A stretch of DNA of 36,129 nucleotides from Candidatus Zixiibacteriota bacterium (GTDB lineage: Bacteria; RBG-13-66-14; B26-G2; WVWN01): contig JAUWLW010000030.1 of NCBI GenBank assembly GCA_030613505.1, positions 1 to 36,129 on the forward strand, read 5' to 3'. Below, in pieces: positions 12,242 through 30,813 of this stretch. A program made the position numbers and the translations under genes. Position 1 is the stretch's first letter; every line of letters starts with the position of its first letter. The notes below the pieces were generated by a model, which had not been told where the DNA came from, did not search any database, and worked only from the letters and a program-made list of their open reading frames with translations.

Positions 12242-12440
12242 ATTAAAATTACGCCGGGGTAAGGATAACGGGCTTCGAACGCCGGGCGGCGAGGGCGGCC
12301 TCGGCCGGAGTGGCAAATGCCCTTTACTCGGCGTGACCCCTTGGGTTATAATTAAAATAAACCCGCGACCGCTTATGCGGGCCCTCGTTTTCCAACCGCG
12401 GCGGCCCGGGTTACGGCGTGCCGCGGGCGTCTGGGGCGGG

Positions 12441-12469
12441 TTGCCGTGGCGCTCGAGTTATTATATAAT
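12441..12469 (+). promoter_or_regulatory. Promoter of the truncated tRNA-Leu copy
   Basis: TTGCCG (12441-12446), 17 nt spacer, TATAAT (12464-12469). It is identical in both elements to the promoter of the intact tRNA-Leu, so it should still be active. Confidence 0.65.
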
Positions 12470-12510
12470 TATATCCGGCCCGTAAGCCGGGAAGGTTGAC
12501 GGCCGAATTC

Positions 12511-12549
12511 GCGAGAGTGGCGGAACTGGCAGACGCGCTGGATTTAGGT
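12511..12549 (+). pseudogene. Truncated tRNA-Leu (5' half only)
   Basis: 39 nt matching the acceptor 5' strand, D arm and anticodon 5' strand plus loop of the intact tRNA-Leu at 13893, with a single C/T difference. Similarity stops at the last base of the anticodon loop. The following sequence bears no anticodon 3' strand, variable arm or T arm. Confidence 0.9.
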
Positions 12550-12576
12550 ACCTTTAAAGGCAGCTTTTATAAGTTT

Positions 12577-12613
12577 AGCGGTTGCAACCCGTTGCGTCGT
12601 AACCGCTTTTTAT
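12577..12613 (+). terminator. Terminator-like hairpin after the truncated tRNA
   Basis: AGCGGTT (12577-12583) pairs with AACCGCT (12601-12607), with an inner GCAAC/GTTGC stem, followed by a run of Ts. Together with the promoter at 12441 it could define a short chimeric transcript. Confidence 0.5.
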
Positions 12614-12681
12614 TTCAGCGCTATGCGCTCCTTGATAATTAACCGCTATTACTCGTAGTTACTCGGAATGCGGCGAAATTT

Positions 12682-12701
12682 TAACACAAAATTGACACAA
12701 A
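12682..12701 (+). repeat. Short direct repeats resembling recombinase arm sites
   Basis: TAACACAAA (12682-12690) and TGACACAAA (12693-12701) are spaced 11 bp apart, one helical turn. Similar A-rich direct repeats next to tRNA attachment sites bind tyrosine recombinases in many integrative elements. No recombinase gene is present here. Confidence 0.3.
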
Positions 12702-12728
12702 AAAACGCCCGGCACGAACCGGGCGTTT
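12699..12728 (-). terminator. Rho-independent terminator of the first NHL gene
   Basis: CGCCCGG/CCGGGCG with a 6 nt loop, followed on the minus strand by a long T run. It lies about 20-45 bases beyond the stop at 12745. Confidence 0.8.
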
Positions 12729-12744
12729 CCTGAGGAGTATGCCC

Positions 12745-13716
12745 TCACCTGAACAACGCCTTCACGCGGCCCAGCGACGTGGGGGTGACGGCGACGTTGA
12801 CCCACTTAAAGTACTGGATCCAGTGGTTGTCGTAATCGGAGACGTAAACCCGATCGCCCGAGGGGTTTACGGCCACGTTAAAAGGTTGTTCGAATTGGCC
12901 CTTGCCCGACCCTCGCGAGCCCCACTTGCCGAGAAAGGAGCCCGACGCGGTGAAGTATTGTATCCGGTAATTGCTGCTGTCGGCGACGTAGACGTCACCG
13001 TTCGGCGCGACGGCGACGTCGTAAGGTGTTTTAAATTGGCCGTCGCCAGCGCCGAAGGAACCCCACTTGCCGAGGAACGAGTCGCTCGAGGTGAAGTACT
13101 GGATGCGGTGGCTGCTGGTATCAGCGACATAGACGTTGCCGTTCGGCGCGACGGCGACTCCCTCGGGACCGATGAATTGGCCGTCGCCGGTGCCAAAAGA
13201 GCCCCACTGGCCGAGGTACAAGCCGTAACGGTTGAAATATTGAACCCGGCAGGTAAACTCGTCAACGACGTAGACCCTATTGCCGTCCGGGGATGTCGCG
13301 ATACCAACGGCTCTTTCGAATTGGCCGTCGCCTGTACCTTCGGAACCCCAAATATTATACAATGAGCCGGTGGCGTTGAAATGCTGGATCCGGAAGTTGA
13401 ACGTATCCGCCACGTAAACGTGGCCCTTAACGCCGACGGCGACGTCCCAGGGCATTTTAAATTCGCCGTGACCGGAGCCTCGCGAGCCCCACTTCCCGCG
13501 GAACTTACCTTTAGGGCCGAAGTACTGGATGCGGTTGTTAGCGGTTTCGACGACGTAGACCCTGCCCCCCGGGGCTACGGCGATGCCGTTAGGCCTGCGG
13601 AATTCGCCTTCGCCGCCGCCGAGGGAGCCCCACTGGCCCTCGTAGACCCAATCGCCGAAGACATAAACGGCCGCCAGCGCCAGCGCCGCGGCCACAATCG
13701 TCGTTACCTTCTTCAT
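12745..13716 (-). CDS. Secreted NHL-repeat beta-propeller protein with C-terminal SLGRVKALF motif
   Basis: 323 residues from ATG 13716, preceded by AAGGAGG; an upstream in-frame ATG lacks an SD. A signal peptide (MKKVTTIVAAALALAA) is followed by six NHL repeats of about 47 residues, each built on G-x-F-x-x-P-x-G-V-A-V-A-P-N-G-x-V-Y-V-A-D and R-I-Q-Y-F and ending G-K-W-G-S. The repeats predict a six-bladed propeller. The protein ends in T-P-T-S-L-G-R-V-K-A-L-F-R, a tail shared with three other proteins in this window. Function is unknown; NHL propellers usually bind proteins or glycans. The gene lies between the two tRNA-Leu repeats, and a same-length paralogue is at 19776. Confidence 0.9.
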   Translation of the reverse strand: MKKVTTIVAAALALAAVYVFGDWVYEGQWGSLGGGEGEFRRPNGIAVAPGGRVYVVETANNRIQYFGPKGKFRGKWGSRGSGHGEFKMPWDVAVGVKGHVYVADTFNFRIQHFNATGSLYNIWGSEGTGDGQFERAVGIATSPDGNRVYVVDEFTCRVQYFNRYGLYLGQWGSFGTGDGQFIGPEGVAVAPNGNVYVADTSSHRIQYFTSSDSFLGKWGSFGAGDGQFKTPYDVAVAPNGDVYVADSSNYRIQYFTASGSFLGKWGSRGSGKGQFEQPFNVAVNPSGDRVYVSDYDNHWIQYFKWVNVAVTPTSLGRVKALFR

Positions 13717-13754
13717 TTCACCGGACCTCCTTCTGCTATTGCCCCTTACGCTGG

Positions 13755-13783
13755 ACTGTAGCACGGGGCCTATCACAAGTCCA
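13755..13783 (-). promoter_or_regulatory. Possible promoter of the first NHL gene
   Basis: On the minus strand TGGACT (13783-13778), 17 nt, TACAGT (13760-13755); each hexamer matches four of six consensus bases. It lies about 40 bases upstream of the ATG. Confidence 0.4.
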
Positions 13784-13817
13784 CTGAAAAGGGCCGGCGC
13801 TAACGGCGGCGCAACGC

Positions 13818-13974
<157 letters not shown>

Positions 13975-13994
13975 AATCTTTTCATGGGAAAAGT

Positions 13995-15197
13995 ATGGCC
14001 GAAGCGAAGAAGATAGGCAAGAATACGGTCCGCGTCGACGTGGAGATACCGCCCGCGGAGGTGCAGGCCAAGGCGGCGGAGGTCTACGCCGAACTCGCCC
14101 GCACCGTTAAGGTCCCGGGGTTTCGGAAGGGGAAGGTCCCGCGGCGCATCCTCCAGCGTTCCTACGCCGACCGCGTCCTCCAGACGGTGGTGGACGAGCT
14201 GGTGCCGGTGGCCTTCGAGCGCGCCGCCGCCGAGCTCGGCCTCGACGCCGTGGGCTCGCCGCGTTATGACGTCGCGTCCGCGACCGAGGAAGGGCCCATC
14301 TCCTTCACCGCGGAGGTGGCCGTCTTCCCCGAAATAACGCTGCCCGATTACGCCAAGTTCGTCGTGAAGCGCGACCGGCCCGAGGTAACGGACGACGACC
14401 TCGCGAAGGGGCTCGAGAACCTGCGCGCCGCGAACGCGCGCCTCGAGCCGGTGGAGGAGCGCGGCAGCCTTGACGGCGACCTCGTTATCCTGAAATTTCT
14501 CGACGAGGAACCGCCCGAAGGTTTTTCCCAGCCTACGGTGGGCGTGTGGGCCGGCGTCCGCGACGAGGAAGATGCCTTCGCGCGGCAGGTGATGGGCAAG
14601 GCGCCGGGCGATACGTTCGCGCTGGCCGTAGAGTATCCGGCCGACTACCCCTCCAAAAGGCACGCCGGCAAGAAGGTCAACGCGCCGGTGGAGGTCGCCG
14701 AAGTCAAGAAGAGGGTTCTGCCCGAGCTGGGCGACGAGTTCGCCAAGGACCTGGGCGAGGACGACTTGGGCGCTTTGCGGGCGAAGTTGAAGGTGCGGCT
14801 GGAGGCTCGAGCCGAGGAGATGTCGTACGCTAACGCGTACCGGCGCTTCGTGGAGGACGTCGCCGCCCACGCCGACGTCCCGCTGGACGACGCCTTCGTC
14901 GAGCAAATTTCGGCCGGGGACGACGAGGGGGAGGGCGGCAAGAGCCGCGACGAGCGTACGGCGGAAGCGCGCCGCGAGCTGAGCCGCTATTTCGTCGTGC
15001 GCGAGCTGGCGCGCCGCGAGGAAGTGGAGGTTGCGGCCGAAGAGGTGCGCGACGCCATAACCGCGGCCGCCTCCCGGCCGGGCGCGCCGCCCGAGCGCCC
15101 CGCCGCGGTCTTCGACCGCCTCCTCAACGAGAAGCTGGCCTCGAAACTTATTCCCCGGGAGGGCCTCGCCGAAGGGGGGAAGGCGGATGGAAGTTAA
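13995..15197 (+). CDS. tig: Trigger factor
   Basis: The 400-residue ribosome-associated chaperone and peptidyl-prolyl isomerase is slightly shorter than the usual 430-450. The N-terminal ribosome-binding domain contains P-G-F-R-K-G-K-V-P (about residue 41), the family signature. A degenerate FKBP-like domain follows (about 150-240, G-S-L-D-G-D-L-V), then the helical C-terminal domain with R-V-L-P-E-L-G-D-E-F-A-K-D-L-G. It binds nascent chains at the ribosome exit. Transcription probably starts at the tRNA-Leu promoter. The 3' end overlaps the methyltransferase gene by 11 nt. Confidence 0.95.
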   Translation: MAEAKKIGKNTVRVDVEIPPAEVQAKAAEVYAELARTVKVPGFRKGKVPRRILQRSYADRVLQTVVDELVPVAFERAAAELGLDAVGSPRYDVASATEEGPISFTAEVAVFPEITLPDYAKFVVKRDRPEVTDDDLAKGLENLRAANARLEPVEERGSLDGDLVILKFLDEEPPEGFSQPTVGVWAGVRDEEDAFARQVMGKAPGDTFALAVEYPADYPSKRHAGKKVNAPVEVAEVKKRVLPELGDEFAKDLGEDDLGALRAKLKVRLEARAEEMSYANAYRRFVEDVAAHADVPLDDAFVEQISAGDDEGEGGKSRDERTAEARRELSRYFVVRELARREEVEVAAEEVRDAITAAASRPGAPPERPAAVFDRLLNEKLASKLIPREGLAEGGKADGS

Positions 15198-15963
15198 AGC
15201 GCCGCAACCCGAGGCCGCGGATAAGTGCGAGCTCTTCGGCGGCCGGCTGGTGCTGGCGCAGCCGCGCGAAGGCTACCGCTTCTCCTTGGACTCTATCCTG
15301 TTGGCGTGGTGGGCGGATTTCGAGCCCGACGACCGCGTCCTGGACGCGGGGTGCGGCGTAGGCGTCGTCTGCCTCGCCCTCGCGCGCTGCCGGGGCGCCC
15401 GCGACGTTACCGGCGTAGAGCTTCAGCCGGATTTGGCCGCGCTCGCCCGGGCGAACGTCGTCGCCAACGAGGCGTCGGCCTGGGTGTCCGTCGTGGAGGC
15501 CGACTTGCGACAGCTGCCGCCGATGTTCGGCAACCGCTTCGACGTGGTGTGCGCCAACCCGCCGTTTTACGAGGAGGGCGCCGGCCGGTTGAACCCGTCC
15601 GCCGGGAAGGCCGCGGCCCGTCACGAGCTAACGTTGACAGTCGACGAGCTCGCGCTGGCGGCGGCCTTCACGCTTAAGAAACGCGGCCGGTTTTACTTCG
15701 TCCACCAGCCGCGTCGGCTGGCCGAGATATTTTCGGCCCTCGGCGACCAGGGGTTCAACGTCGAGCGGCTCCGCTTCGTGCAGCCGCGCGCCGGCGAAGC
15801 GGCGAACCTGGTTTTGGTCGGGGCGCGTTTGGGCGGCGCGCGCGAAATGGTCGTCATGCGGCCGCTGGTGATATACGACGCCCCCGACGAGTACGGCGCC
15901 GAGGTCGCGGCGATTTACGGAGGCCGGGGTGGGCCGCTGTACGGCCGGCGGACGGAAGTATGA
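15187..15963 (+). CDS. TrmN6-like tRNA (adenine-N6) methyltransferase
   Basis: A 258-residue class I SAM-dependent methyltransferase. Motif I is V-L-D-A-G-C-G-V-G-V-V (about residue 49), and the adenine-N6/glutamine methylase signature N-P-P-F-Y lies at about residue 123. Its start (L-A-Q-P-R-E-G-Y-R-F-S-L-D-S-I-L-L) matches the TrmN6/YfiC family, which modifies A37 of tRNA-Val in E. coli. Its substrate here is inferred only. It overlaps tig (11 nt) and the lipase-like gene (ATGA, 4 nt), so all three are translationally coupled. Confidence 0.85.
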   Translation: MEVKAPQPEAADKCELFGGRLVLAQPREGYRFSLDSILLAWWADFEPDDRVLDAGCGVGVVCLALARCRGARDVTGVELQPDLAALARANVVANEASAWVSVVEADLRQLPPMFGNRFDVVCANPPFYEEGAGRLNPSAGKAAARHELTLTVDELALAAAFTLKKRGRFYFVHQPRRLAEIFSALGDQGFNVERLRFVQPRAGEAANLVLVGARLGGAREMVVMRPLVIYDAPDEYGAEVAAIYGGRGGPLYGRRTEV

Positions 15964-17036
15964 CGGGGCTGACGGATAGCGGAAGCTGCGGCGTCCTGCG
16001 CGACGCCGCGGCGCTGCCGGTTTTGCTCATCGGCGTCTTTATGCTGGTCTCGATGGGGACCCAGGACGACCTGCCATCCCCCGAGGACCGCCTCTTCGCC
16101 GGCATCGGCGGCGACTACCGCGTGACGAATTTCGGCGTCCACGGCACCGCCGGCGTCTACCCGCTGCGCATCAAGTACTTCGACCATCCGGACTACGGCG
16201 GCCCGCCGGTCATTTTGGTCCACGGCATGGGCACCTCGGACGCGTACTTTTGGCGCGTGCACGGCGAGGTAGAGGTATTCGCCGGCTTCATATACTCCGA
16301 GCAACGCGACATTTCCGCGGTGGGCCACGGCCAGGGGTTGGTCGACCTTGGCTACGACGTCGTTACCTATACTTACCCCGACTCGCGCAACCGTCCCCTC
16401 GAGTACCAGGCGTACGACCTCGCCCGCGTCATAAAATGGACCAAGGAAAGGTTTATTAAGGACAAGGTCATACTGGTCGGCCACAGCACCGGCGGCCTCA
16501 TCTGCCGTTACTACGTGGAATCGGGCCAGCCCGGTCGCAAGAACTACCAGTTCCCCTATAAGGAGAAACGCGATTATACCTGGAACCGCTTCTACAACGT
16601 GTCCGACTTCGAGATGCGGCGCTTGCGGTACCGCTACGACGTCGCCAACCTCGTCCTCATCGCGACGCCGAATTTCGGTAACCTCAAGGAGGACGGCCGC
16701 GACTACCGGAGCCCGGCGCTGTTCGAGATGAAGGAGAACAGCGGCTTCGTCACCTGGCTCGAGGAGGGGCGAAGCAACGCCGAGGCCAAGGGTTACAAGA
16801 GGCCGCCGGTGTGCGTCGTCGTCGGCACCAAGTACGACAACTATATGGGCGAGGGGCCGCTCGACTTCGGCGACGGCATGGTGGCCGTGCCGTCCGCGGT
16901 GGGGCCGTTCGGCGAGGACGCTCGAGCCGGGGTCTACTACTTCGACCTCGACCACTTCGAGCTGGCCATGGACGGCGCCGTGCTCGCGAAGATCTACAAC
17001 GCGTTGAATAAAGACGAGGCCGAGCCGGCGTCGTGA
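15960..17036 (+). CDS. Alpha/beta-hydrolase, lipase-like, membrane-anchored or secreted
   Basis: The 358-residue protein starts at ATG 15960, overlapping the previous stop. A hydrophobic segment at about 12-32 can serve as signal anchor. The alpha/beta-hydrolase core shows the oxyanion stretch V-I-L-V-H-G-M-G and the nucleophile elbow G-H-S-T-G-G (Ser176). A late D-x-D-H-F motif contains a likely catalytic His332, with an acidic residue around D303 (F-G-D-G-M-V). This resembles the triacylglycerol lipase/PGAP1-like group; the substrate is unknown. The last 66 bases of the gene and its terminator are duplicated at 19649. Confidence 0.8.
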   Translation: MTGLTDSGSCGVLRDAAALPVLLIGVFMLVSMGTQDDLPSPEDRLFAGIGGDYRVTNFGVHGTAGVYPLRIKYFDHPDYGGPPVILVHGMGTSDAYFWRVHGEVEVFAGFIYSEQRDISAVGHGQGLVDLGYDVVTYTYPDSRNRPLEYQAYDLARVIKWTKERFIKDKVILVGHSTGGLICRYYVESGQPGRKNYQFPYKEKRDYTWNRFYNVSDFEMRRLRYRYDVANLVLIATPNFGNLKEDGRDYRSPALFEMKENSGFVTWLEEGRSNAEAKGYKRPPVCVVVGTKYDNYMGEGPLDFGDGMVAVPSAVGPFGEDARAGVYYFDLDHFELAMDGAVLAKIYNALNKDEAEPAS

Positions 17037-17060
17037 ATCGCAAAACGTGCTTAATTTAAA

Positions 17061-17083
17061 AGCCGCCCCAAAGGGCGGCTTTG
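17061..17083 (+). terminator. Bidirectional terminator after the lipase gene
   Basis: AGCCGCCC/GGGCGGCT with a 4 nt loop, flanked by A-rich and T-rich tracts. It can serve the lipase operon and, on the other strand, the tRNA-Lys copy. Confidence 0.75.
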
Positions 17084-17095
17084 CGTTCTGGAATT

Positions 17096-17170
17096 TGAGC
17101 CGGCTGGGATTCGAACCCGGGACTCCCGGCTTAAAAGGCCGGTGCTCTGACCGGGCTGAGCTAGCGCCTC
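17096..17170 (-). pseudogene. Decayed tRNA-Lys (UUU) copy
   Basis: The 75-nt sequence keeps the lysine anticodon arm (CCGGC-CTTTTAA-GCCGG) and D arm of the intact gene at 21824. The acceptor stem has two mismatches (G4-G69 and C7-C66) and the T stem one C-A mismatch. No promoter lies upstream, whereas the intact copy has one. It is best read as a non-functional duplicate. Confidence 0.75.
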
Positions 17171-17459
17171 GTTTGGCCGGGGGGACGGGGCGACGAAAAA
17201 TGGAAGAGGATATTTTTTAATCGATGGGGGGAGATTATATAATTGATAACGGTCGGGTTTTTTGTTATTGTAATAAGCTGGTTATTAACGACTTTGGCTA
17301 ATGCTTCTGTTCCCCCGCGGCTTAGCTAGCCCGAGCATTTCGCGGTTCGTATAGGCCCAAACGATGTAGGGCCCTTACAGCCCGGACTAAGCCAATAAGT
17401 CTCTTCGAAAAAAAGAAAGCCTTTAGACGGTGGCCTATCGGCCTCCGTTGGAGGAGGTA
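17171..17459 (+). other. AT-richer gene-free stretch before the inositol cassette
   Basis: No ORF with coding character. A TATAAT at 17238-17243 lacks a good -35 and is far (about 217 nt) from the next start. This is probably part of the inserted segment following the decayed tRNA-Lys. Confidence 0.4.
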
Positions 17460-18266
17460 GTGTCCCAAACGGATACGACGCTGGCCCATCTCGAGGCCCT
17501 TTTCCTCGAGGTGCGGCGTGCTGTTATGAGGGCGGGTGCAGGTTCGGCCGTTGAGGTTAAGTTCAACGCCAAAGGGGACCGCGTCAGGGCGTTCGACGTA
17601 GCGGCTAACGAGGCCGCTTGTGCCTACCTGGGGGACCGGTTCCCTTGGCCGGTCGAAGTGTTGTCGGAGGAGTCCGCGCCCCGGCGGCTCGGCGCCGGCG
17701 AGCCGGAGTTCACGGTGGTCCTCGACCCGGTGGACGGTTCGGATAATTTCGCCCGCGGTATTGCCCCTTCGGCCGTAGCGGTGGCGCTTGTCCCGGCGGG
17801 GGAGCCGATCGCGGTCGATACGGTCCAGTTCGCCTTAGTGGGGGATTTGTTGACCGGCGAAGTGTGGCGCGCCCGGCGGGGACGTGGGGCATGTAGCAAC
17901 GGCCGCGCCCTTCGAACCGCCGCCGTAACGTTACTTGAAGAGGCTATGTTAAGTTGCGAGATGAACCATTTCGCGGTCGGGGAGAAACTGACGGGTGTAC
18001 TGTCGCGGGCGCGAGGTGTCCGCGCCTTCGGTTGTGCAACGTGGGCGCTCGTTATGGTGGCCGGCGGCCGGCTCGACGCCCACCTCGATTTGCGCGGGCG
18101 CCTTACGCCGGAGAATTTCCTGGCGCCGTCTCTTATCTTAGCCGAGGCCGGCGGCGTGGTGACCGACGGCGAAGGGAAGGCGCTGCCCCCGGTTCGAGGT
18201 CTTACGGAACGTTTTTCCGTCGTGGCCGCGGCGACGCCGGACCTGCACGCGGCGCTAATGCGGTAA
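17460..18266 (+). CDS. Inositol monophosphatase-family phosphatase
   Basis: 268 residues from GTG 17460, which has a perfect SD (GGAGG) 5 nt upstream; the upstream GTG at 17430 has none. The IMPase/FBPase metal-site motifs are present: S-E-E-S (about 67) and D-P-V-D-G-S-D-N-F-A-R-G (about 89). A late W-A-L-V-M-V-A-G-G-R-L-D-A-H-L-D segment matches the second family signature. Placed 19 bp before an IPCT/DIPPS-like gene, the likely job is removing phosphate from di-myo-inositol-1,3'-phosphate-1'-phosphate or from inositol-1-phosphate. That role is inferred from context. Confidence 0.85.
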   Translation: MSQTDTTLAHLEALFLEVRRAVMRAGAGSAVEVKFNAKGDRVRAFDVAANEAACAYLGDRFPWPVEVLSEESAPRRLGAGEPEFTVVLDPVDGSDNFARGIAPSAVAVALVPAGEPIAVDTVQFALVGDLLTGEVWRARRGRGACSNGRALRTAAVTLLEEAMLSCEMNHFAVGEKLTGVLSRARGVRAFGCATWALVMVAGGRLDAHLDLRGRLTPENFLAPSLILAEAGGVVTDGEGKALPPVRGLTERFSVVAAATPDLHAALMR

Positions 18267-18285
18267 TTGAACGAAAGCTTTCGGC

Positions 18286-19689
18286 ATGAATAATAAAACC
18301 ACGCGTGGGCGCGAAGCCACTTACGCTTTGCCGGTAGTAATTTTAGCGGCCGGCGAAGGTTGTCGCCTGCAGGCGGGGAACGGCGGAAAGCCGAAACCTC
18401 TCACGCGGCTTCTGGGGCTTACCTTTCTGGAGCGGGTTATCCTATCCTGCCGCGAGGTGGGCGTCCGGGAGTTTTACGTAGTGACGGGTTGTTATGAAGA
18501 CGAACTCATCCGCCACGTCGAAGAGTTGGGGCGGCGGCTCGGCATTTCGATTCGGCCGGTGCATAATCCTAATTGGCCGGACGGGAACGGCACTTCGGTA
18601 TTGGCCGTTTCCCCCTATATCGCCGGGCCCTTCCTGCTGGTGATGTGCGACCACCTCTTCGACCCCGATATCCTTCGCTGCCTTATGGAAGCTATGGACG
18701 ACGGCGAAGGCTGCCTCCTCGCGGTAGACCCGCGCGTCGACCGGGTCTTTGACCTGAAGGACGCGACCAAGGTCTGCCTCGACGGCCGGAACGTCACGGC
18801 CATCGGTAAAGGGCTCGCCCCGTTCGACGCGGTGGACACGGGCCTCTTCCTTTGCCGGCCATTTCTCTTCGACGCGTTGGCGGAGGCCCGGCGCGGCGGG
18901 GACGGGTCCCTCTCCGGCGGCGTCCGGCGGTTGGTCGAGGAGGGCAGGGTCCGCGCGGTTGACGTCGCCGATCGCTTCTGGCTCGACGTGGATACCCCCG
19001 AGAGCCTCTCCCTCGGAAAGAAGCACCTGCTGACCGGACTTGCTAAGCGGGGCGACGACGGCATTATATCGCGCCGTTTAAACCGCCCCCTTTCGCGCCG
19101 GATTTCCCAACTTCTCGCCGCCACCCCGCTTACCCCCAACGCTATTACCGTTTTGAGTTTCCTGAGCTGCCTCGGCGGCGCCTTCCTCTTCGGCCTGGGT
19201 ATATACGGGTGGACCGTCGTCGCGGGGTTTCTGGTCCAATGGGCCTCGGTCCTGGACGGCTGCGACGGCGAGGTCGCCCGGCTCAAGTTTCAGGGCAGCC
19301 GCTTCGGCGCCTGGTTCGATACGGTCCTGGACCGCTACGCGGACGTCGCGGTCGTTGTGGGCATTTCTTACGGCTATTGGCTCGCCCATCCCCGGCCGCT
19401 CGTCTGGCTGGCGGGCGCGGTGGCTTTGACCGGCTTCGTCCTGGCCAGCTACACGAAGAAAGAATACGCCCTCCGTTTTCGACTTCAGCCGCCGGGCGGC
19501 GTGCTGAGTAATTTGGCCAAGAGGGACGTGCGCCTCTTCGCGTTATTCTTGGGCGCCCTCGTCAATCGGCCCTTCGAGGTTATGGTCCTCGTAGGCCTTC
19601 TTTCCCATACGATTATAGGTTGGTTGTTCTTCGCCGTTTACCGGCAGAGACGGCGCCGTGCTCGCGAAGATCTACAACGCGTTGAATAA
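18286..19689 (+). CDS. Bifunctional IPCT/DIPPS-like protein (CTP:inositol-1-P cytidylyltransferase + CDP-alcohol phosphatidyltransferase)
   Basis: The 467-residue fusion starts with a nucleotidyltransferase domain (about 1-250; L-A-A-G-E-G-C-R-L, K-P-x-x-R-L-L-G, V-M-C-D-H). A CDP-alcohol phosphotransferase domain (about 255-455) carries D-G-C-D-G-E-V-A-R-x8-G-x3-D-x3-D at about 322 and several membrane helices. This order is that of IPCT/DIPPS, which makes CDP-inositol and condenses it with inositol-1-phosphate to a di-myo-inositol-phosphate precursor, a solute of hyperthermophiles. A phospholipid-headgroup role is an alternative. The last 10-12 codons come from the duplicated lipase 3' end read in another frame, so the native C-terminus was replaced. 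Confidence 0.8.
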   Translation: MNNKTTRGREATYALPVVILAAGEGCRLQAGNGGKPKPLTRLLGLTFLERVILSCREVGVREFYVVTGCYEDELIRHVEELGRRLGISIRPVHNPNWPDGNGTSVLAVSPYIAGPFLLVMCDHLFDPDILRCLMEAMDDGEGCLLAVDPRVDRVFDLKDATKVCLDGRNVTAIGKGLAPFDAVDTGLFLCRPFLFDALAEARRGGDGSLSGGVRRLVEEGRVRAVDVADRFWLDVDTPESLSLGKKHLLTGLAKRGDDGIISRRLNRPLSRRISQLLAATPLTPNAITVLSFLSCLGGAFLFGLGIYGWTVVAGFLVQWASVLDGCDGEVARLKFQGSRFGAWFDTVLDRYADVAVVVGISYGYWLAHPRPLVWLAGAVALTGFVLASYTKKEYALRFRLQPPGGVLSNLAKRDVRLFALFLGALVNRPFEVMVLVGLLSHTIIGWLFFAVYRQRRRRAREDLQRVE

Positions 19690-19762
19690 GGACGACGCCG
19701 AGCCGGCGTCGTGAATCGTAAAACGTGCTTAATTAAAAAACCGCCCCGAGGGGCGGTTTCGC
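19649..19762 (+). repeat. Repeat B: displaced lipase 3' end and terminator
   Basis: Matches 16971-17085 (offset 2678) with few substitutions and small indels in the A-rich tract. It begins within the end of the IPCT/DIPPS-like gene and stops after the terminator, where the NHL gene region starts. The original lipase reading frame is still open through its stop codon. Confidence 0.9.
19735..19760. terminator. Bidirectional terminator between inositol cassette and second NHL gene
   Basis: AACCGCCCC/GGGGCGGTT with a GAG loop, flanked by six As and by TTTCGCTTT. It serves the plus-strand cassette and the minus-strand NHL gene. Confidence 0.8.
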
Positions 19763-19775
19763 TTTAGGGGGCGAG

Positions 19776-20747
19776 TTATTTAAACAACGCCTTAATCCGG
19801 CCCACGGACGAAGGGACGACCGCGGGATGCGATTCCCGGAAGTATTGGATGCGATCATTAAAGGTATCGGCGACGTAAACGCGAGAACCATCCGCAGAAA
19901 CTACTACGCCTTCCGGGCAATAGAATTCGCCGTTCCCGGAGCCGCGGGTGCCCCACTTGCCGAGGAACGAGCCGACGGGAGTGAAGTACTGGATCCGGTT
20001 GTTGTAGATGTCGGTTACGAAGACGTTGCCGTTGGGGGCTGTCGCGACGCCGTAAGGACGGTTGAATTGGCCGTCGCCGCTACCCTGCGAGCCCCATTTG
20101 CCGACGTAAGACCCGCCTGAGGTAAAGTATTGGACGCGGAAGTTAAGGCGTTCGCCGACGTAAACGCGGGCCCCCGACGGCGAGACGGCAACGCCCATCG
20201 GGCGGTTAAATTGGCCGTTACCCGAGCCGGACGTACCCCACTTGCCGAGGAACGAGCCGCTAGCGGTGAAGTATTGAACGCGGTCATTCTCGGTGTCGCC
20301 TACGTAAACGTTCCCGTTGGGCGCCACCGTTATCCCGTTAGGTTTATCGAACTGGCCGTCGCCTTTACCCTGTGAGCCCCACTTCCCGAGGAACGGACCC
20401 GCCGGCGTGAAATATTGGATCCGGTGTCGAGCCGTATCAGCGACGTAAACGTTCCCTTTGGTAGCGACCGCGATACCTTCGGGGTACCTGAATTCACCGT
20501 TGCCTGAACCGGATTTGCCCCAATTACCGCGAAAATGACCGTTCCACGTGAAGTACTGGACGCGGTGATTGTACGTATCCGCGACGTAAACGTTGCCGTT
20601 TGCTGCTAAGGCAATACCCATAGGCTGATTAAATTCGCCTGACTGGGACCCGGGCGAACCCCACTTGCCCTCGTAGACCCAGTCGGGTAAAGCCGGGGCA
20701 GCCGCGGCCGCCAAAACGGCAACTACGTAAAACGCGGTCCTTTTCAT
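19776..20747 (-). CDS. Secreted NHL-repeat beta-propeller protein with C-terminal SVGRIKALF motif
   Basis: 323 residues, the same length as its paralogue at 12745. A signal peptide (MKRTAFYVVAVLAAAAAPALP) precedes D-W-V-Y-E-G-K-W-G-S and six NHL repeats with the V-A-x-x-G-N-V-Y-V-A-D-T and R-V/I-Q-Y-F pattern. It ends V-P-S-S-V-G-R-I-K-A-L-F-K. A good SD (AAAGGAGG) precedes the ATG. The predicted six-bladed propeller is extracellular or periplasmic; ligand unknown. Nucleotide repeats between blades make recombination within the gene likely. It lies in the tRNA-Lys island, as its paralogue lies in the tRNA-Leu island. Confidence 0.9.
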   Translation of the reverse strand: MKRTAFYVVAVLAAAAAPALPDWVYEGKWGSPGSQSGEFNQPMGIALAANGNVYVADTYNHRVQYFTWNGHFRGNWGKSGSGNGEFRYPEGIAVATKGNVYVADTARHRIQYFTPAGPFLGKWGSQGKGDGQFDKPNGITVAPNGNVYVGDTENDRVQYFTASGSFLGKWGTSGSGNGQFNRPMGVAVSPSGARVYVGERLNFRVQYFTSGGSYVGKWGSQGSGDGQFNRPYGVATAPNGNVFVTDIYNNRIQYFTPVGSFLGKWGTRGSGNGEFYCPEGVVVSADGSRVYVADTFNDRIQYFRESHPAVVPSSVGRIKALFK

Positions 20748-20800
20748 CTCGCCTCCTTTACACCGAGTACCGGACCCCTAAGCGAGGGGCCCGGGTATAA

Positions 20801-20824
20801 AAGGGCGAACGGCCGTTCGCCCTT
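20801..20824 (-). terminator. Terminator after the 247-residue secreted protein gene
   Basis: A perfect 24-bp palindrome (AAGGGCGAAC + its complement) overlaps the stop codon and is followed on the minus strand by TTTTAT. It separates this gene from the downstream NHL gene. Confidence 0.75.
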
Positions 20825-21566
20825 ACTCTAACAGCGCCTTGACGCGGCCGAGGGACGCGGGTTCGACTTTTGACGAATTACGATAAAAGTAGATATAATC
20901 GGTCGCGTCGTCAACTACCTGAACTTCGACTACCGAGCCCTTTACCATTATGGCGATATTACCGAAGCCGGTGGGGGTTTTGATACCCGTAATTACGGGT
21001 TTGCCTTCCTCGTAAACGGCGTGTGTTGCCGAATCCGTAACGAAGAACTCGCCGGGGTAGCCGCCGCACGCCGTGGGCCGCGAGCCGGGCGCGTTGAACG
21101 TACTTACCAACGAACCCGTATTCTCGTCTACGACGGCGATAACGTTCCGCCCCGGGATCGGCACGTAAAGCTTGGAGCCAAACCCCCTGTCCATGTCGGC
21201 GGGCCCGGGGACCGGGCACCGGAACGAACGAACTACGGAACCGGTCGCGGTAACTTCGTAAATCCAGGAACTCCTTTCGTTAGATAAGTACATGTTCGAA
21301 CCGGGGCCTGGACATATGCCCCAAGCCCCCCGGCCGCCCGGCGCCGGGAAACTCGCCATAATACTCGACGTATACCAATACATCCGATAGACGTACGGCG
21401 TAGGGCCGTCCTGGACGATATATCCCCTGAAATCACCGTCGCTCGTATAACCGCGGGGATTAGGCCCGGGCGTTGGATAGGAAGCGTAAAGCTCCCAGGT
21501 GGCCGCTCCCACAGCTAATGCTAAGATAACCGTACAGGCGGCCGTCCAAATCGATTTATCTCTCAT
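20823..21566 (-). CDS. Secreted propeller-like protein with C-terminal SLGRVKALL motif
   Basis: A 247-residue protein with a signal peptide or N-terminal anchor (I-W-T-A-A-C-T-V-I-L-A-L-A-V-G-A-A). The mature part has short beta-propeller-like repeats: A-S-F-P-A-P-G-G-R-G, N-M-Y-L-S-N, N-T-G-S-L-V-S-T-F-N-A-P-G. The same phrases recur in the protein at 30049. The C-terminus is V-E-P-A-S-L-G-R-V-K-A-L-L-E, the motif shared with both NHL proteins. No enzymatic residues are evident. It starts 2 bp after the 46-residue protein gene, so the two are co-transcribed. Confidence 0.75.
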   Translation of the reverse strand: MRDKSIWTAACTVILALAVGAATWELYASYPTPGPNPRGYTSDGDFRGYIVQDGPTPYVYRMYWYTSSIMASFPAPGGRGAWGICPGPGSNMYLSNERSSWIYEVTATGSVVRSFRCPVPGPADMDRGFGSKLYVPIPGRNVIAVVDENTGSLVSTFNAPGSRPTACGGYPGEFFVTDSATHAVYEEGKPVITGIKTPTGFGNIAIMVKGSVVEVQVVDDATDYIYFYRNSSKVEPASLGRVKALLE

Positions 21567-21783: not shown

Positions 21784-21812
21784 AAAAAAACCGCCCCGAG
21801 GGGCGGCTTTTC
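21784..21812 (-). terminator. Terminator after tRNA-Lys
   Basis: CCGCCCC/GGGGCGG with a GAG loop, followed on the minus strand by seven Ts, just beyond the tRNA 3' end. Confidence 0.8.
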
Positions 21813-21898
21813 ATTCTGGAATTTGAGCCGCTTGGGATTCGAACCCAAGACTCCCGGCTTAAAAGGCCGGTGCTCTGACCGGGCTGAGCTAGCGGCTC
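21786..21898 (-). repeat. Repeat C: terminator plus intact tRNA-Lys
   Basis: Third piece of the lipase/terminator/tRNA-Lys repeat family, matching 17061-17170. The motif TTCTGGAATTTGAGCC between terminator and tRNA is shared with copy A. Repeats B and C together equal copy A split by the secreted-protein genes. Confidence 0.85.
21824..21898 (-). tRNA. tRNA-Lys (anticodon UUU)
   Basis: 75 nt with full pairing of acceptor (GAGCCGC/GCGGCTC), anticodon stem (CCGGC/GCCGG, loop CTTTTAA) and T stem (TTGGG/CCCAA). CCA is not encoded. It is followed by a terminator and preceded by a strong promoter, unlike the copy at 17096. Confidence 0.95.
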
Positions 21899-21910
21899 GC
21901 GACGGCCTAT

Positions 21911-21939: not shown

Positions 21940-21947
21940 CCCCGCCG

Positions 21948-25015: not shown

Positions 25016-25040
25016 GAATTATCGATAAGGATAAGAAGCG

Positions 25041-25063
25041 ACGGCGGCCTTGACGGCCGCCGT
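25041..25063. repeat. REP-like palindrome 1
   Basis: ACGGCGGCC-TTGA-CGGCCGCCGT type inverted repeat, one of seven related palindromes at 25.0-32.4 kb with a G/C stem and T/A centre. This copy sits between two convergent genes. Confidence 0.7.
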
Positions 25064-25112
25064 TTAAGTTTACCTTGGCCCTTTAAACTCGGGCCACGCG
25101 TCGAAGCTGTTT

Positions 25113-25691: not shown

Positions 25692-25699
25692 ACGTGATA

Positions 25700-25728
25700 A
25701 TTATAACAGATTGGCGGCCTGGAGGCAA
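25700..25728 (-). promoter_or_regulatory. Promoter of the TPR gene, likely leaderless
   Basis: On the minus strand TTGCCT (25728-25723), 17 nt, TATAAT (25705-25700) with TGn. The -10 ends only 8 nt before the ATG at 25691. Confidence 0.7.
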
Positions 25729-25780
25729 AATAGCTCAAGGCCCTCGCCTTATAAGTCTTTGTTTTTGAGGCAGTAACGGC

Positions 25781-26197: not shown

Positions 26198-26271
26198 CGC
26201 CGCCTCCTTTCGCGTCGACGCTATTCTATCAGAACGGGCTGTCGTGTCAAATGCTTTCCCCTTCCGCTGTG

Positions 26272-26294
26272 GCGGCGGCCTTGACGGCCGCCGC
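26272..26294. repeat. REP-like palindrome 2
   Basis: GCGGCGGCC-TTGA-CGGCCGCCGC type inverted repeat, nearly the same stem as copy 1, upstream of the transposase remnant. Confidence 0.75.
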
Positions 26295-26320
26295 TTCGGA
26301 CTAATCCGGTGTTCCCGGGA

Positions 26321-26343
26321 GCGGCCGGTTTTAGACCGGCCGC
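26321..26343. repeat. REP-like palindrome 3 (variant stem)
   Basis: GCGGCCGGT-TTTAG-ACCGGCCGC inverted repeat. The stem differs from the other copies, but it has the same size and T/A centre and lies between copies 2 and 4. Confidence 0.6.
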
Positions 26344-26362
26344 GCAGTGATAGAGGTCGAAA

Positions 26363-26385
26363 GGGCGGTCTTAAGGGCCGCCGCT
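26363..26385. repeat. REP-like palindrome 4 with GTAG end
   Basis: Imperfect GGCGG...TTAA...CCGCC palindrome. On the minus strand it begins with GTAG followed by the GC-rich stem, the classic form of REPs linked to RAYT transposases. It lies 29 bp before the transposase ORF. Confidence 0.7.
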
Positions 26386-26413
26386 ACGTGCGGGCGTTAT
26401 GTTATTATCGGGT

Positions 26414-26891
26414 ATGGATTACGCTAAGTATAAGGGCCGTCCATCCCTGCGTTTGGAGGGAGTCGATTACGGCGAACAGGTTACGTACGCCGTTACCTTT
26501 AATACGAACAATCGAGTACCACACTTCAAAGACCCGGGGCTGGCGGCCTCCCTATTTGTCGATAATAATCCGCGCCCGGCTGGAAGTACGTTTCTACGTT
26601 TACGGTTACTGCATAATGCCCGACCACGTTCACTTAATGGTGCAGCCGCATGGGGCGACAACGCTTTCCCGAATCGTCCGTTCCGCAAAGGGCCCGATGA
26701 CGGCGACGTTCCGCAAATTTAAACCCGGCGTTACGCTGTGGCAACGGGGATACGTCGATGACGTTATAAACAGCGAAAAGGAATTCGTAAACGTACTGAG
26801 ATATATATTTCTAAATCCGGTTAAGGAGGGGCTGAGCGAGGGCGAGTTCGATTACCCTTTTAGCGGGGCGTTGGATTATTTTACTCTTTAG
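26414..26891 (+). pseudogene. REP-associated tyrosine transposase (RAYT), frameshifted
   Basis: The N-terminal part (M-D-Y-A-K-Y-K-G ... T-Y-A-V-T-F-N-T-N-N) is in one frame. The rest, with the HUH motif P-D-H-V-H-L-M and the tyrosine motif R-G-Y-V-D-D-V-I, is in a second. The switch is at ATAATAAT, 26561-26570, so one base was lost or gained in a short repeat. Joined, it gives about 158 residues, the size of a Y1/RAYT single-strand transposase. Such enzymes cut and join at REP hairpins, and seven are nearby. As written it would be inactive; a sequencing error is possible. Confidence 0.8.
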
Positions 26892-26905
26892 GGGAGAAAG
26901 CGGTA

Positions 26906-26930
26906 ACGGCGGACTTTAAGTCCGCCGCTG
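26906..26930. repeat. REP-like palindrome 5
   Basis: Near-perfect ACGGCGGACTT-TAAGTCCGCCG inverted repeat just downstream of the transposase remnant. With copy 4 it brackets the RAYT gene. Confidence 0.75.
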
Positions 26931-26991
26931 CCGGGCGCGAGCGGTTTTTTATAATGCGAGGATAGCGATCCCGAAGAAGGAGAGGATCTTT

Positions 26992-28656
26992 ATGGCGGTA
27001 GGGAGCAAGCCGCGCACGGTCCGCGCGCCGCGGGGCGCGACGCTCAGCTGCAAGGGCTGGCACCAGGAGGCGGCGCTGCGGATGCTGATGAACAACCTCG
27101 ACCCGGACGTCGCCGAGATACCCGAGGAGCTGGTCGTCTACGGCGGCGCCGGCAAGGCCGCGCGCAGTTGGGAAGCGTTCGACAAGATAGTAGAGACGCT
27201 CCGGCGGCTGGATAACGACGAGACGCTGCTCATTCAATCCGGCAAGCCGGTGGGGGTTTTCAAGACGACGCCGGATGCCCCGCGCGTCCTCCTCGCCAAC
27301 TCCCTTCTCGTGCCGGCCTGGGCGAACTGGGAGACGTTCTGGGAGCTGGAGGGCCGCGGCCTCATAATGTACGGCCAGATGACCGCAGGCTCCTGGATCT
27401 ACATCGGGACTCAGGGGATCCTGCAGGGAACGTACGAGACCTTCGCCGAGTGCGCGCGCCAGCATTTCGGCGGCTCGCTCGCCGGCAAATGGGTCCTCAC
27501 CGCGGGGATGGGCGGTATGTCCGGCGCGCAGCCGCTGGCCGTCACGATGAACGAGGGCGTCGTCGTCGACGTCGAGGTCGACCCGGCGCGCGTCCAGCGT
27601 CGCGTGGACCAGGGCTTCTGCGACCGCATGACGGCCGACGTCGACGAGGCGCTGCGCTGGCGCGATGAGGCGCTGAAGAAGAAGGAACCCTTGTCGATAG
27701 GCCTGGTGGCCAACGCCGGCGACGTCCACCCCGAGCTCGCGCGCCGCGGCGAGGTCCCCGACGCGCTGACGGACCAGACGTCGGCCCACGACATGCTCAA
27801 AGGCTACGTCCCGGCGGGGATGACGCTCGCCGAGGCGCTGGCGCTCCGCGAGAAGGACCCGGAGGGATATCAGGAGCGCGCGTTCGAGACCGTCGCCGTT
27901 CACGTCGAGGCCATGCTCGCGATGCAGAAGGGGGGCGCCGTCACCTTCGACTACGGCAACAACATCCGCGCGCAGGCGAAGAAGGCCGGCGTCGCGGACG
28001 CGTTCGCGTTCCCGGGGTTCGTGCCGGCGTACATCAGGCCGATGTTCTGCCGCGGCAAGGGGCCGTTCCGCTGGGCCGCGCTCTCCGGCGAGGCGGCCGA
28101 CATCGCCGCGACGGACGAGGAAGTTTTGCGCCTTTTCCCGGAGGACGAGGCGCTCGCGCGGTGGATAAGGCTGGCGCAGGAGAAGGTCCCGTTCCAGGGC
28201 TTGCCCAGTAGGATATGCTGGCTTGGCTACGGCGACCGCGCCAAGATGGGCCTGGCGATGAACGAGCTCGTTAAATCCGGGAAGGCGAAGGCGCCGTTCG
28301 TGATAGGCCGCGACCACCTCGACGGCGGCTCGGTGGCGTCGCCGTACCGCGAGACGGAGGGGATGCGCGACGGCTCGGACGCCATCGCCGATTGGCCTAT
28401 CCTGAACGCGTTGCTCAACGCCGTCTCCGGCGCGACGTGGGTGAGCGTGCACCACGGCGGCGGCGTCGGCATCGGCTACTCGCTGCACGCGGGCCAGGTT
28501 ATCGTAGCCGACGGCACCGGGGAGCAGGCGGCCCGCCTCGAGCGCGTCCTGACCAACGACCCGGGGACGGCGGTTATGCGCCACGCCGACGCCGGCTACG
28601 ACGAGGCCATAAAGGTCGCGAAGGAGAAGGGCGTCGACCTGCCGAGCGTGGAATAA
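26992..28656 (+). CDS. hutU: Urocanate hydratase
   Basis: The 554-residue enzyme converts urocanate to imidazolone-propionate in histidine degradation, using tightly bound NAD as electrophile. Conserved blocks are seen: W[15 protein letters not shown], [20 protein letters not shown], and [15 protein letters not shown] with probable active-site Cys353. A start with SD (AAGGAGAGG) and a TATAAT at 26950 precede it. No hutH, hutI or hutG lies in the window. The last 22 codons are duplicated twice downstream. Confidence 0.97.
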
Positions 28657-28672
28657 CCACTAAGCGATCGAA

Positions 28673-28696
28673 ACGGCGGCCTTTAAGGCCGCCGCC
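28673..28696. repeat. REP-like palindrome 6
   Basis: Perfect ACGGCGGCCTT-TAAGGCCGCCG inverted repeat, 17 bp after the hutU stop. Confidence 0.8.
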
Positions 28697-28717
28697 GGCG
28701 AAAACTGAGGAGCGTTG

Positions 28718-29077
28718 ATGGAATACTCCATTCATACCGACGTGAAGTACGGGCCGCTGGAGGTCGTAGACGTCGGCGCGCTGGCCGACGAGTGCGCCGA
28801 ACGCTGGTGGAACCAGACGCTCTGCCGCGTAGGCGACAGCGTAGCGCGCCTCGCCGTGCTGGAGGGCGAGTTCCACTGGCACCGGCACGACCGCGAGGAT
28901 GAGTTCTTCTTCGTCCTCGACGGCAAGCTCCTGATCGATTTGGAGGGGCGGACGGTGGAGCTCGGCCCCCGGCAGGGCCTCGTCGTACCTAAAGGCGTAT
29001 TGCACCGGCCGCGCGCGCCCCAGCGTACCGTCGTCCTCATGTTCGAGAGGGAGACCGTTACGGCCACGGGCGACTGA
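28718..29077 (+). CDS. Cupin-domain protein
   Basis: A 119-residue single-domain cupin. Motif 1 is H-W-H-R-H-D-R-E-D-E-F-F-F-V-L-D-G (metal ligands His/His/Glu). Motif 2 is P-K-G-V-L-H-R-P. The start is ATG 28718 with GAGGAG 5 nt upstream; an in-frame TTG at 28715 is less likely. Such small cupins are often isomerases or metal-dependent dioxygenases of sugars or amino acids; substrate unknown. It lies between the true hutU end and a displaced copy of that end. Confidence 0.85.
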   Translation: MEYSIHTDVKYGPLEVVDVGALADECAERWWNQTLCRVGDSVARLAVLEGEFHWHRHDREDEFFFVLDGKLLIDLEGRTVELGPRQGLVVPKGVLHRPRAPQRTVVLMFERETVTATGD

Positions 29078-29084
29078 CGGAATA

Positions 29085-29150
29085 GCCGGCTACGAGGAAG
29101 CGATACAGGTTGCTCGGGAGAAGGGCGTCGATTTGCCGAGCATCGAATAA
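29085..29150 (+). pseudogene. Displaced hutU 3' end, copy 1 (22 codons with stop)
   Basis: Translates [21 protein letters not shown]-stop against [21 protein letters not shown]-stop in hutU. Length is identical; most base changes are silent, and the four amino-acid changes are conservative. That suggests a diverged functional hutU as source rather than random decay. It has no start codon of its own. Confidence 0.85.
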
Positions 29151-29188
29151 TTAAAAAGTACTTTGAAGGTCAAGAGGAGGCGAGTGAA

Positions 29189-29929
29189 ATGGCGAGGGAT
29201 TTATATCGCTTATTGGCGGTGGCCGCGGCGTTAGGAGCGGCAGGAGTCGGGCCGGCGCCGGCGCTCGAGCTGAGCCTCGCGCCGTTGTTCGGGATGACGG
29301 CCGCGGGCGGTTTCACGTACGACGATTACGGCGATGCCTTCCACCGCGCGTACGCCGGCGATTGGTTTCCGTATTATTGGGGCGGCCGGGCGCACGCGCG
29401 GATAGCTGAATATCAAGGCGACGTTGCGGCTTTCTCGTTGAATTCCTTTCACGGCGTACGGCGCATACCCGGTCTGCACATAAATTTAAAGGCGCGGGAG
29501 ACGCTCCTTGTCGTCGATGCGGGGCGTAGTTTCGGCGACGGGAGAATCCGCCCGACGGCGAACGTGAGCGGTCGTTGGTCGCGCGCACACGGCGTATACG
29601 AAAGTCACCCTTACACCACGTACGACATAAATAGTTACTTCGGCGGCGTAGGCTGGGGTATGGAATTTTCGCATACGTTGCTGAGCGGTGGCGTTGGCGC
29701 TACTGCGGGCTACCACTACGTTAGTTACTATTACGACGGGCGCACGGCGTGGGATAATAGACGTATCGCCGGCCTCTTGGACTTGGGGGTACGTTTTCAC
29801 GTCGCAGCTTGGTTCGCTGTTCGCGGCGACGCGTCCATTTTCGCGGACGTGATCGATCTGGGTAACTCGGGCCCCTCGTGGAGCGAAGCCCGTTTTTGCG
29901 TCGGCCCGGAATTTATCCTTACGATGTGA
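29189..29929 (+). CDS. Outer-membrane beta-barrel-like protein, hypothetical
   Basis: 246 residues with signal peptide (M-A-R-D-L-Y-R-L-L-A-V-A-A-A-L-G-A-A-G) and probable cleavage near A-P-A-L-E. The mature protein is rich in aromatic, Gly and alternating residues (W-F-P-Y-Y-W-G-G-R, Y-F-G-G-V-G-W-G-M-E-F, H-Y-V-S-Y-Y-Y-D-G-R), as in outer-membrane barrels. The leader and signal-peptide DNA are almost the same as those of the gene at 30049, although the mature proteins differ. SD GAGGAGG precedes the ATG. Confidence 0.65.
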   Translation: MARDLYRLLAVAAALGAAGVGPAPALELSLAPLFGMTAAGGFTYDDYGDAFHRAYAGDWFPYYWGGRAHARIAEYQGDVAAFSLNSFHGVRRIPGLHINLKARETLLVVDAGRSFGDGRIRPTANVSGRWSRAHGVYESHPYTTYDINSYFGGVGWGMEFSHTLLSGGVGATAGYHYVSYYYDGRTAWDNRRIAGLLDLGVRFHVAAWFAVRGDASIFADVIDLGNSGPSWSEARFCVGPEFILTM

Positions 29930-29943
29930 GTTCCGGCGGGGCC

Positions 29944-30009
29944 GAAGGTTACGACGAGGCGTTCCGCGAGGTGGAAGATAAGGGCGTAGATTTGCCGAGT
30001 GTCGGATAA
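29944..30009 (+). pseudogene. Displaced hutU 3' end, copy 2 (22 codons with stop)
   Basis: [21 protein letters not shown]-stop: still in frame and of the same length, but more diverged than copy 1. It follows directly on the stop of the gene at 29189. Confidence 0.8.
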
Positions 30010-30048
30010 TAAAAGAAGCGGTTTGAAGGTTAAAAGGAGGCGAGTGAG

Positions 30049-30813
30049 ATGGCGAGGAATTTATGTAGCGTATTGGCCGTAGCGGCGGTATTAGCCCCAA
30101 CCGCCGGCGCGCTGATGTGGCCGCCGCAGCTTATAGCCTCGTTCCCGGCGCCGCCGGGCGCGATAGACGTGGCGTTCGAGCACGGGCCGCTGTACGCCCT
30201 GGCTGGCGGAGCGACGCCAACGGTGTTCACCTTGAATTATTGGAACGGCTCGATAACCGGTAGCTTCAGTATACCGCTGCCGAACGGCGCGCGGGGCATT
30301 GCGACGACCGGCTACAGCCCAACTCATATGTGGGTAAGCAACCGCTTGAACGGGTTCCTTTACCGCTTGACCACGAACGGTTCCCTGCTCGGTTCGTTCG
30401 CATGCCCCGGCGGAACGCCTTTTGGCCTCGGCGGCTTCCTGTACGGTTACGAGCCCGACGACGGGTACCTTACCGTATCCTGCCGGGACGAGAATCATAT
30501 TTTACGGGTGAACCATACGACGGGGTCCTTGGTCTCGAGTTTCGCCGGTCCGGCGACCGCGGTCATAGGTTACGACGAATGGCTTGCCGTCGACCGTTAT
30601 ACTAGTTACTTGTATTGGAATCACTACGGGAGTTGGCAAGTTCTCGATACGCTACCGGCGCCGCCTTGGGGCGTCGGGACGACCGTTATGTGGACTACCG
30701 GCCACGGCGTTCGCGCCTACGTGTTGTGCCATGACGGATATATTTATCATTATAGCGGTTATACCGCTGTCGCGCCGGCGTCGCTGGGCCGGGTGAAGGC
30801 GTTGTTTCGGTAA
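30049..30813 (+). CDS. Secreted propeller-like protein with C-terminal SLGRVKALF motif
   Basis: 254 residues; signal peptide M-A-R-N-L-C-S-V-L-A-V-A-A-V-L-A-P-T-A-G. The mature part has WD/NHL-like repeats with G-S-I-T-G-S-F, T-N-G-S-L-L-G-S-F-A-C-P-G and T-T-G-S-L-V-S-S-F-A-G-P, similar in phrase to the protein at 20823. The end is V-A-P-A-S-L-G-R-V-K-A-L-F-R. No catalytic residues are evident. The gene follows a displaced hutU end and shares its 5' region with the barrel gene at 29189. Confidence 0.8.
   Translation: MARNLCSVLAVAAVLAPTAGALMWPPQLIASFPAPPGAIDVAFEHGPLYALAGGATPTVFTLNYWNGSITGSFSIPLPNGARGIATTGYSPTHMWVSNRLNGFLYRLTTNGSLLGSFACPGGTPFGLGGFLYGYEPDDGYLTVSCRDENHILRVNHTTGSLVSSFAGPATAVIGYDEWLAVDRYTSYLYWNHYGSWQVLDTLPAPPWGVGTTVMWTTGHGVRAYVLCHDGYIYHYSGYTAVAPASLGRVKALFR

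What the first reader, a model, noticed from the sequence alone, without database searches (positions are those of the whole stretch)
12436..30813. One recurrent architecture at three loci: accessory secreted genes beside displaced ends of resident genes, without integrase
tRNA-Leu, lipase/tRNA-Lys and hutU all show duplicated ends bordering inserted genes, and each locus carries at least one protein with the SLGRVKALF tail. Chance duplication at three separate sites within 18 kb, always next to the same protein class, seems unlikely. A cassette-type mobile system acting at gene ends, with a recombinase encoded elsewhere, would explain it.
Basis: inference. Interest (0 to 1): 0.75.

Follow-up and report, generated by a model that had tools for sequence, protein, structure and literature searches.

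The report
Small gene insertions duplicating gene ends
The copied gene ends are real and come from repeated, integrase-free insertions of small DNA pieces found across this uncultured bacterium's genome with many kinds of cargo, so they look like an already described insertion pattern and not a dedicated cassette system for one protein class.

Summary
Observation confirmed. Direct duplications of resident gene ends flank inserted genes at tRNA-Leu (117 bp, 95%), lipase/tRNA-Lys (117 bp and 114 bp, 91%) and hutU (66 bp at 82%, plus an older copy at about 70%). Related genomes show empty or differently filled sites.

A genome-wide scan found 14 such pairs in 1.29 Mb of this genome, against 1 in 1.06 Mb of other bacteria. 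They are commoner near tail-protein genes (22 vs 3.8 per Mb). Yet only 6 of 97 tail genes lie inside a duplication-bounded insert. The other cargo is mixed: a BglII-like restriction-modification system, a short-chain dehydrogenase, AT-rich small ORFs, inositol phosphatase plus CDP-alcohol transferase, cupin. Inserts share no ends. No resolvase-type recombinase was found, and two relatives have only two tyrosine recombinases.

The anatomy matches "insertion with long target duplication", described for Helicobacter restriction-modification genes. Displaced copies are no more decayed than functional ones, and no clean own-genome pair exceeds 97% identity. This suggests the two copies came from different strains, i.e. 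additive one-sided recombination of imported DNA, possibly by transformation (comEC and dprA present). The mechanism is inferred, not shown.

The parts
12436..12552 (+). Displaced copy: upstream region plus 5' half of tRNA-Leu, ending in the anticodon loop
   Evidence: D3
12699..13788 (-). Inserted cassette: NHL-repeat secreted protein with SLGRVKALF tail (12745-13776) and its terminator; 85% identical over 1102 bp to a copy on contig C92 of the same genome
13818..13934 (+). Resident copy: promoter region and 5' half of the intact tRNA-Leu (13893-13974)
   Evidence: collinear with G001 from 13789
16971..17087 (+). 3' end of the intact lipase-like gene plus terminator
   Evidence: D4
17096..17170 (-). 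Second tRNA-Lys copy with mispaired acceptor stem (decaying)
   Evidence: D6, 54
17172..19648 (+). Insert: inositol monophosphatase-family gene and NTP-transferase/CDP-alcohol phosphatidyltransferase gene; absent from G001 at this site
19649..19765 (+). Displaced lipase 3' end and terminator; the CDP-alcohol transferase frame runs into it
   Evidence: D4
19776..21566 (-). Two tail-bearing secreted genes; counterparts at the same site in G003 and other tail genes there in G002
21786..21899 (-). Terminator and intact tRNA-Lys next to purA
   Evidence: D6
28591..28656 (+). 3' end of the intact hutU (26992-28656)
   Evidence: D5
28715..29077 (+). Cupin gene lying between hutU and the displaced hutU end; also present in G001 and G003
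29085..29150 (+). Displaced hutU 3' end 1, reading frame and stop kept
29189..29929 (+). Secreted protein gene without tail, in a unit that repeats the displaced hutU end and signal-peptide region
29944..30009 (+). Displaced hutU 3' end 2, older; corresponds to a decayed remnant in G003
30049..30813 (+). Tail-bearing secreted gene next to displaced end 2

Best explanation
The three loci are separate, sequential horizontal acquisitions of small DNA pieces at intergenic positions. Each left a long (64-240 bp) direct duplication of the neighbouring gene end, the pattern called insertion with long target duplication. Most likely step by step: (1) DNA from a related strain, carrying a homologous gene end next to a new gene, enters the cell; (2) the homologous part recombines with the resident gene; (3) the other end is joined illegitimately within about 60-240 bp of the resident gene's end; (4) the resident gene stays whole, now completed by the incoming allele, and its old end is displaced beyond the insert. 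Short displaced ends survive because longer repeats would recombine out. Shown: the duplications, the empty or alternative sites in relatives, diverse cargo, no shared ends. Inferred: steps 1-4, the transformation route, and selection for short repeats. Tail genes are enriched around these sites because they too occupy the variable positions, not because they are the mobile unit (inference).
For: Duplications. Empty sites: insert next to comEC (L177 252-374/1350-1472) against a single 120-123 bp target in both G001 and G003; lipase/tRNA-Lys against G001 and tRNA-Leu against G003. Variable content at one site: metK/tRNA-Leu holds a tail NHL gene here, a different tail gene in G002, a sulfatase plus sulfatase maturase in G001, nothing in G003. 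Foreign-looking cargo: insert GC 0.38-0.43 against flanks 0.57-0.68 in four cases; BglII-type endonuclease fragment plus N6/N4 methylase in L124. Two-lineage origin of copies: changes fall equally on functional and displaced copies (27 vs 32; 70% displaced rejected, p=0.008); third-codon bias 34/26/69 and one indel in about 1270 aligned coding sites; the clean own-genome pairs are 82-97% identical, none identical. Competence genes: comEC in this genome, dprA in all four.
Against: No donor allele or illegitimate-junction microhomology was identified. At comEC the duplication reaches into both neighbouring genes, which a simple one-sided event explains less naturally than a staggered cut. Functional copies may have been replaced by other strains' alleles after insertion, which would mimic a two-lineage origin. 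Homology-facilitated illegitimate recombination is rare in laboratory strains (PMC5361080) and often deletes recipient DNA (general knowledge).
Confidence: 0.5

Rival explanations
1. True long target-site duplication: two nicks 60-240 bp apart on opposite strands are filled in while a foreign fragment is captured, giving identical copies that later diverge or are replaced by other alleles.
For: At comEC both flanking genes stay intact and the target is single in two relatives, exactly as a staggered cut predicts. Same geometry at L134 7226/8431.
Against: No clean own-genome pair is above 97% identical even around unameliorated AT-rich inserts; displaced copies are not more derived; no Ku.
Confidence: 0.28
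2. A dedicated cassette system: a recombinase encoded elsewhere moves tail-protein genes into gene ends.
For: Recurrence at three loci and 4-6 fold enrichment around tail genes.
Against: 91 of 97 tail genes are not inside such an insert; cargo is diverse; no shared ends; no resolvase and only two tyrosine recombinases in G001 and G002; signature also in G004.
Confidence: 0.05
3. Assembly chimeras: two strains in the metagenome were stitched together, leaving strain-divergent duplicate ends.
For: All genomes are drafts or possibly scaffolded, and the copies differ at a strain-like 5-9%.
Against: Decayed hutU-end remnants beside the same cupin gene occur in three independently held genomes; a displaced tRNA-Lys end occurs in G002 and displaced gene ends in G004, both single-contig; stitching would need sequence overlap between insert and displaced end, which is not seen.
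Confidence: 0.07
4. Tandem duplication of an accessory gene together with the end of its neighbour, followed by divergence of the gene bodies.
For: Fits the hutU unit repeat 29088-29234/29947-30094 and tatC (L178, two paralogous genes each preceded by the tatC start).
Against: Does not explain inserts with no paralogue on either side, such as comEC, L124, L134, L140, L208 and the tRNA-Leu insert.
Confidence: 0.1

Closest known systems
Insertion with long target duplication (Nobusato et al. 2000, Gene 259:99-108; described in PMC1643837, PMC3031569)
   Same: Inserts flanked by long, variable-length direct repeats of the target, single-copy target in a relative, no transposase; one case here carries a restriction-modification system.
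   Different: Most cargo here is not restriction-modification; the two copies appear to derive from different alleles and not to have been identical when formed (inferred).
Homology-facilitated illegitimate recombination with displaced remnants (Vibrio cholerae T6SS immunity arrays, PMC5361080)
   Same: Homologous anchor on one side, illegitimate joining on the other, resident end shifted downstream and piling up in arrays, as at hutU.
   Different: Single housekeeping gene ends and tRNAs here, not effector-immunity modules; the event itself was not observed.
Minimal mobile elements of Neisseria (MME literature)
   Same: Different genes between the same two conserved genes in different relatives (metK/tRNA-Leu).
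   Different: MMEs are exchanged by homologous recombination in both flanks (general knowledge) and need not leave displaced ends.
tRNA-integrating genomic islands
   Same: tRNA-Leu, tRNA-Lys and another tRNA-like gene are used as sites.
   Different: The 5' half or whole tRNA is duplicated; no integrase in the inserts; protein gene ends are used equally.

Membership tests
Insertion with long target duplication | Insert bounded by long direct repeats of the target | tested here: met
   14 pairs in 1.29 Mb, about 64-240 bp
Insertion with long target duplication | Relative with an empty site holding a single target copy | tested here: met
   comEC site in G001 and G003; lipase/tRNA-Lys in G001; tRNA-Leu site in G003 without insert
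Insertion with long target duplication | Restriction-modification cargo | tested here: inconclusive
   Met in one case (L124, BglII-like fragment and methylase), not in the window's three loci
Insertion with long target duplication | Copies identical at formation | tested here: inconclusive
   Functional and displaced copies equally changed; clean own-genome pairs at most 97% identical
Homology-facilitated illegitimate recombination | One homologous end, one illegitimate end with microhomology | tested here: inconclusive
   Junctions inspected; donor sequence unknown
Homology-facilitated illegitimate recombination | DNA uptake machinery present | tested here: met
   comEC, dprA; activity untested, and dprA is common in non-competent bacteria too
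Integron-type gene cassettes | Common recombination site at cassette ends and a matching integrase | tested here: not met
   No shared ends; no surplus tyrosine recombinase in G001/G002
tRNA-targeted integrative islands | tRNA 3' end repeat and element-borne integrase | tested here: not met
   5' half of tRNA-Leu duplicated; no integrase in inserts
Minimal mobile elements | Alternative gene content between the same conserved genes in relatives | tested here: met
   metK/tRNA-Leu in four genomes
Minimal mobile elements | Exchange by homologous recombination in both flanks during transformation | not testable with these tools
   Needs population genomes or experiment

The most novel reading that the evidence does not exclude
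An undescribed enzyme-driven insertion process in this phylum makes cuts 60-240 bp apart at gene borders and captures single genes, sparing both neighbours, with tail-protein genes as one favoured cargo.
Probability: 0.07. Interest if true: 0.8.

Novelty: new member of a known kind. Interest (0 to 1): 0.4.

Why it matters
Insertion with long target duplication was described in 2000, mainly for restriction-modification genes, and I found no settled mechanism for it. A genome with about 11 such sites per Mb, empty sites in relatives and mixed cargo gives many replicate events. The observation that both copies look like separate functional alleles points to recombination between strains over a cut-and-fill mechanism. 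It also warns against reading displaced gene ends as proof of an integrase.

Tried and rejected
A shared mobile element: inserts compared all against all, no common sequence beyond NHL/tail paralogues. Terminal inverted repeats or end motifs: none. End joining by Ku: absent. Resolvase-type recombinases: absent. Tyrosine recombinases: only two in G001 and G002. Tail genes as the mobile unit: 6 of 97 inside a bounded insert. The tail as a known sorting family: no NCBIfam or Pfam model for it was hit, and a literature search on sorting signals found nothing. The open-access library does not hold Furuta et al. 2010.

Full report
What is there. The window is contig C18 of a 2.86 Mb draft genome in 100 contigs. 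Its closest hutU hits in named genomes are 64-75% identical and come from many phyla, so the organism belongs to an uncultured lineage that I could not name. Tail-bearing genes sit at each locus.

Comparison with relatives. Three genomes of the same genus are held. G001 has lipase, tRNA-Lys and purA in a row with single copies, so the window's 4.6 kb between the two tRNA-Lys copies is extra relative to it. G003 and G002 carry tail genes between lipase and tRNA-Lys, so that part of the insert is older. The inositol phosphatase/CDP-alcohol transferase pair with the second tRNA-Lys was seen at this site only in the window. Between metK and tRNA-Leu, G003 has 270 bp, G002 a different tail gene, and G001 a sulfatase with its radical-SAM maturase. 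After hutU, G001 and G003 share the cupin gene, followed by decayed remnants of the hutU end (L118 near 2800; L120 near 6680-6740). G003 has a further piece inserted between hutU and another displaced hutU end (L120 near 6240). The hutU locus is therefore a pile-up of several events of different age.

Genome-wide test. With one fixed criterion (60-300 bp, at least 80% identity, one copy holding a gene or tRNA end that the other copy lacks) there were 11 and 3 displaced-end pairs, 22 and 3.8 per Mb. Another 1.06 Mb from 80 stretches of other bacteria gave one, and 1.22 Mb from G001-G004 gave six, two of them the same place. The excess in this genome over other bacteria has p=0.0016, and the excess around tail genes p=0.003 (0.017 without the window). 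One or two of the 11 pairs involve NHL or tail-family genes that the motif filter missed, so the enrichment is approximate. The enrichment is regional only: 6 of 97 tail motifs lie inside a duplication-bounded segment.

Nature of the inserts. Clean cases (coordinates in the fetched loci) are L177 252-374/1350-1472 at comEC, L124 319/2107, L134 711/1856 and 7226/8431, L140 3808/4906, L165 6183/7080, L208 10239/11397, and G004 L249, L254 and L245. Inserts are mostly 0.8-1.7 kb. Cargo: a BglII-type endonuclease fragment with a DNA methylase, a short-chain dehydrogenase, a nitroreductase, a likely outer-membrane barrel, and small unknown ORFs. Four inserts are far more AT-rich than their flanks. 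They share no sequence and no end motif. The tRNA-Leu insert is 85% identical over 1.1 kb to a segment on contig C92.

Mechanism. At comEC both G001 and G003 hold the target once, and the insert lies between two copies of exactly that stretch. This is the geometry of insertion with long target duplication, reported from Helicobacter pylori for restriction-modification genes (PMC1643837, PMC3031569). If the copies had been identical at birth, the functionless one should carry most later changes. With outgroups the changes are 27 on functional and 32 on displaced copies. The coding parts show third-position bias and almost no indels, and no clean own-genome pair exceeds 97% identity. Both copies therefore seem to have diverged as working gene ends in different strains. 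The closest proposed process is homology-facilitated illegitimate recombination, which the Vibrio cholerae authors invoked for displaced gene arrays (PMC5361080). Uptake genes comEC and dprA are present. The alternative, a staggered cut followed by allelic exchange, is not excluded. A recombinase-driven cassette system is unlikely.

Limits. Only part of each genome could be read, gene calls come from a simple hexamer model written here, and all genomes are draft-like. The polarised-change test rests on 59 changes at ten segments, 18 of them from one hutU copy.

Noticed in passing
window 12745-13776, 19776-21566, 30049-30813; 97 motifs in G000: The C-terminal tail P-x-S-[LV]-G-R-[VI]-K-A-L-[FY]-[RK] occurs about 60-100 times per genome in this genus and at most 5 times in each other genome of the phylum, 0 in reversed controls; no family model was hit. 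It looks like an undescribed sorting tag of secreted proteins.
   Followed up: partly
window 12700-12777 vs L121 17611-17688: At metK/tRNA-Leu the window and G002 share the tail-coding end and terminator (79 bp, 85%) but have different gene bodies (NHL propeller vs unrelated protein), suggesting body swapping next to a fixed tail.
   Followed up: partly
window 26399-26891: Broken Y1-type (REP-associated-like) transposase directly upstream of hutU; 4 Y1 transposase hits in this genome, 1-5 in relatives.
   Followed up: partly
L124 448-1988 (contig C7): BglII-like endonuclease fragment and N6/N4 methylase between 98-bp duplications of a neighbouring gene's start: a textbook restriction-modification case of long target duplication.
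   Followed up: yes
L178 15775-17847: Tandem duplication of a secreted gene that carries along a copy of the tatC start, a related but distinct way to displace a gene end.
   Followed up: partly
many repeat ends, e.g. L134 711, L140 3910, L165 6183, L121 9269: Several duplications end at the T-run or A-run of an intrinsic terminator; whether this reflects mechanism or module borders was not tested.
   Followed up: no
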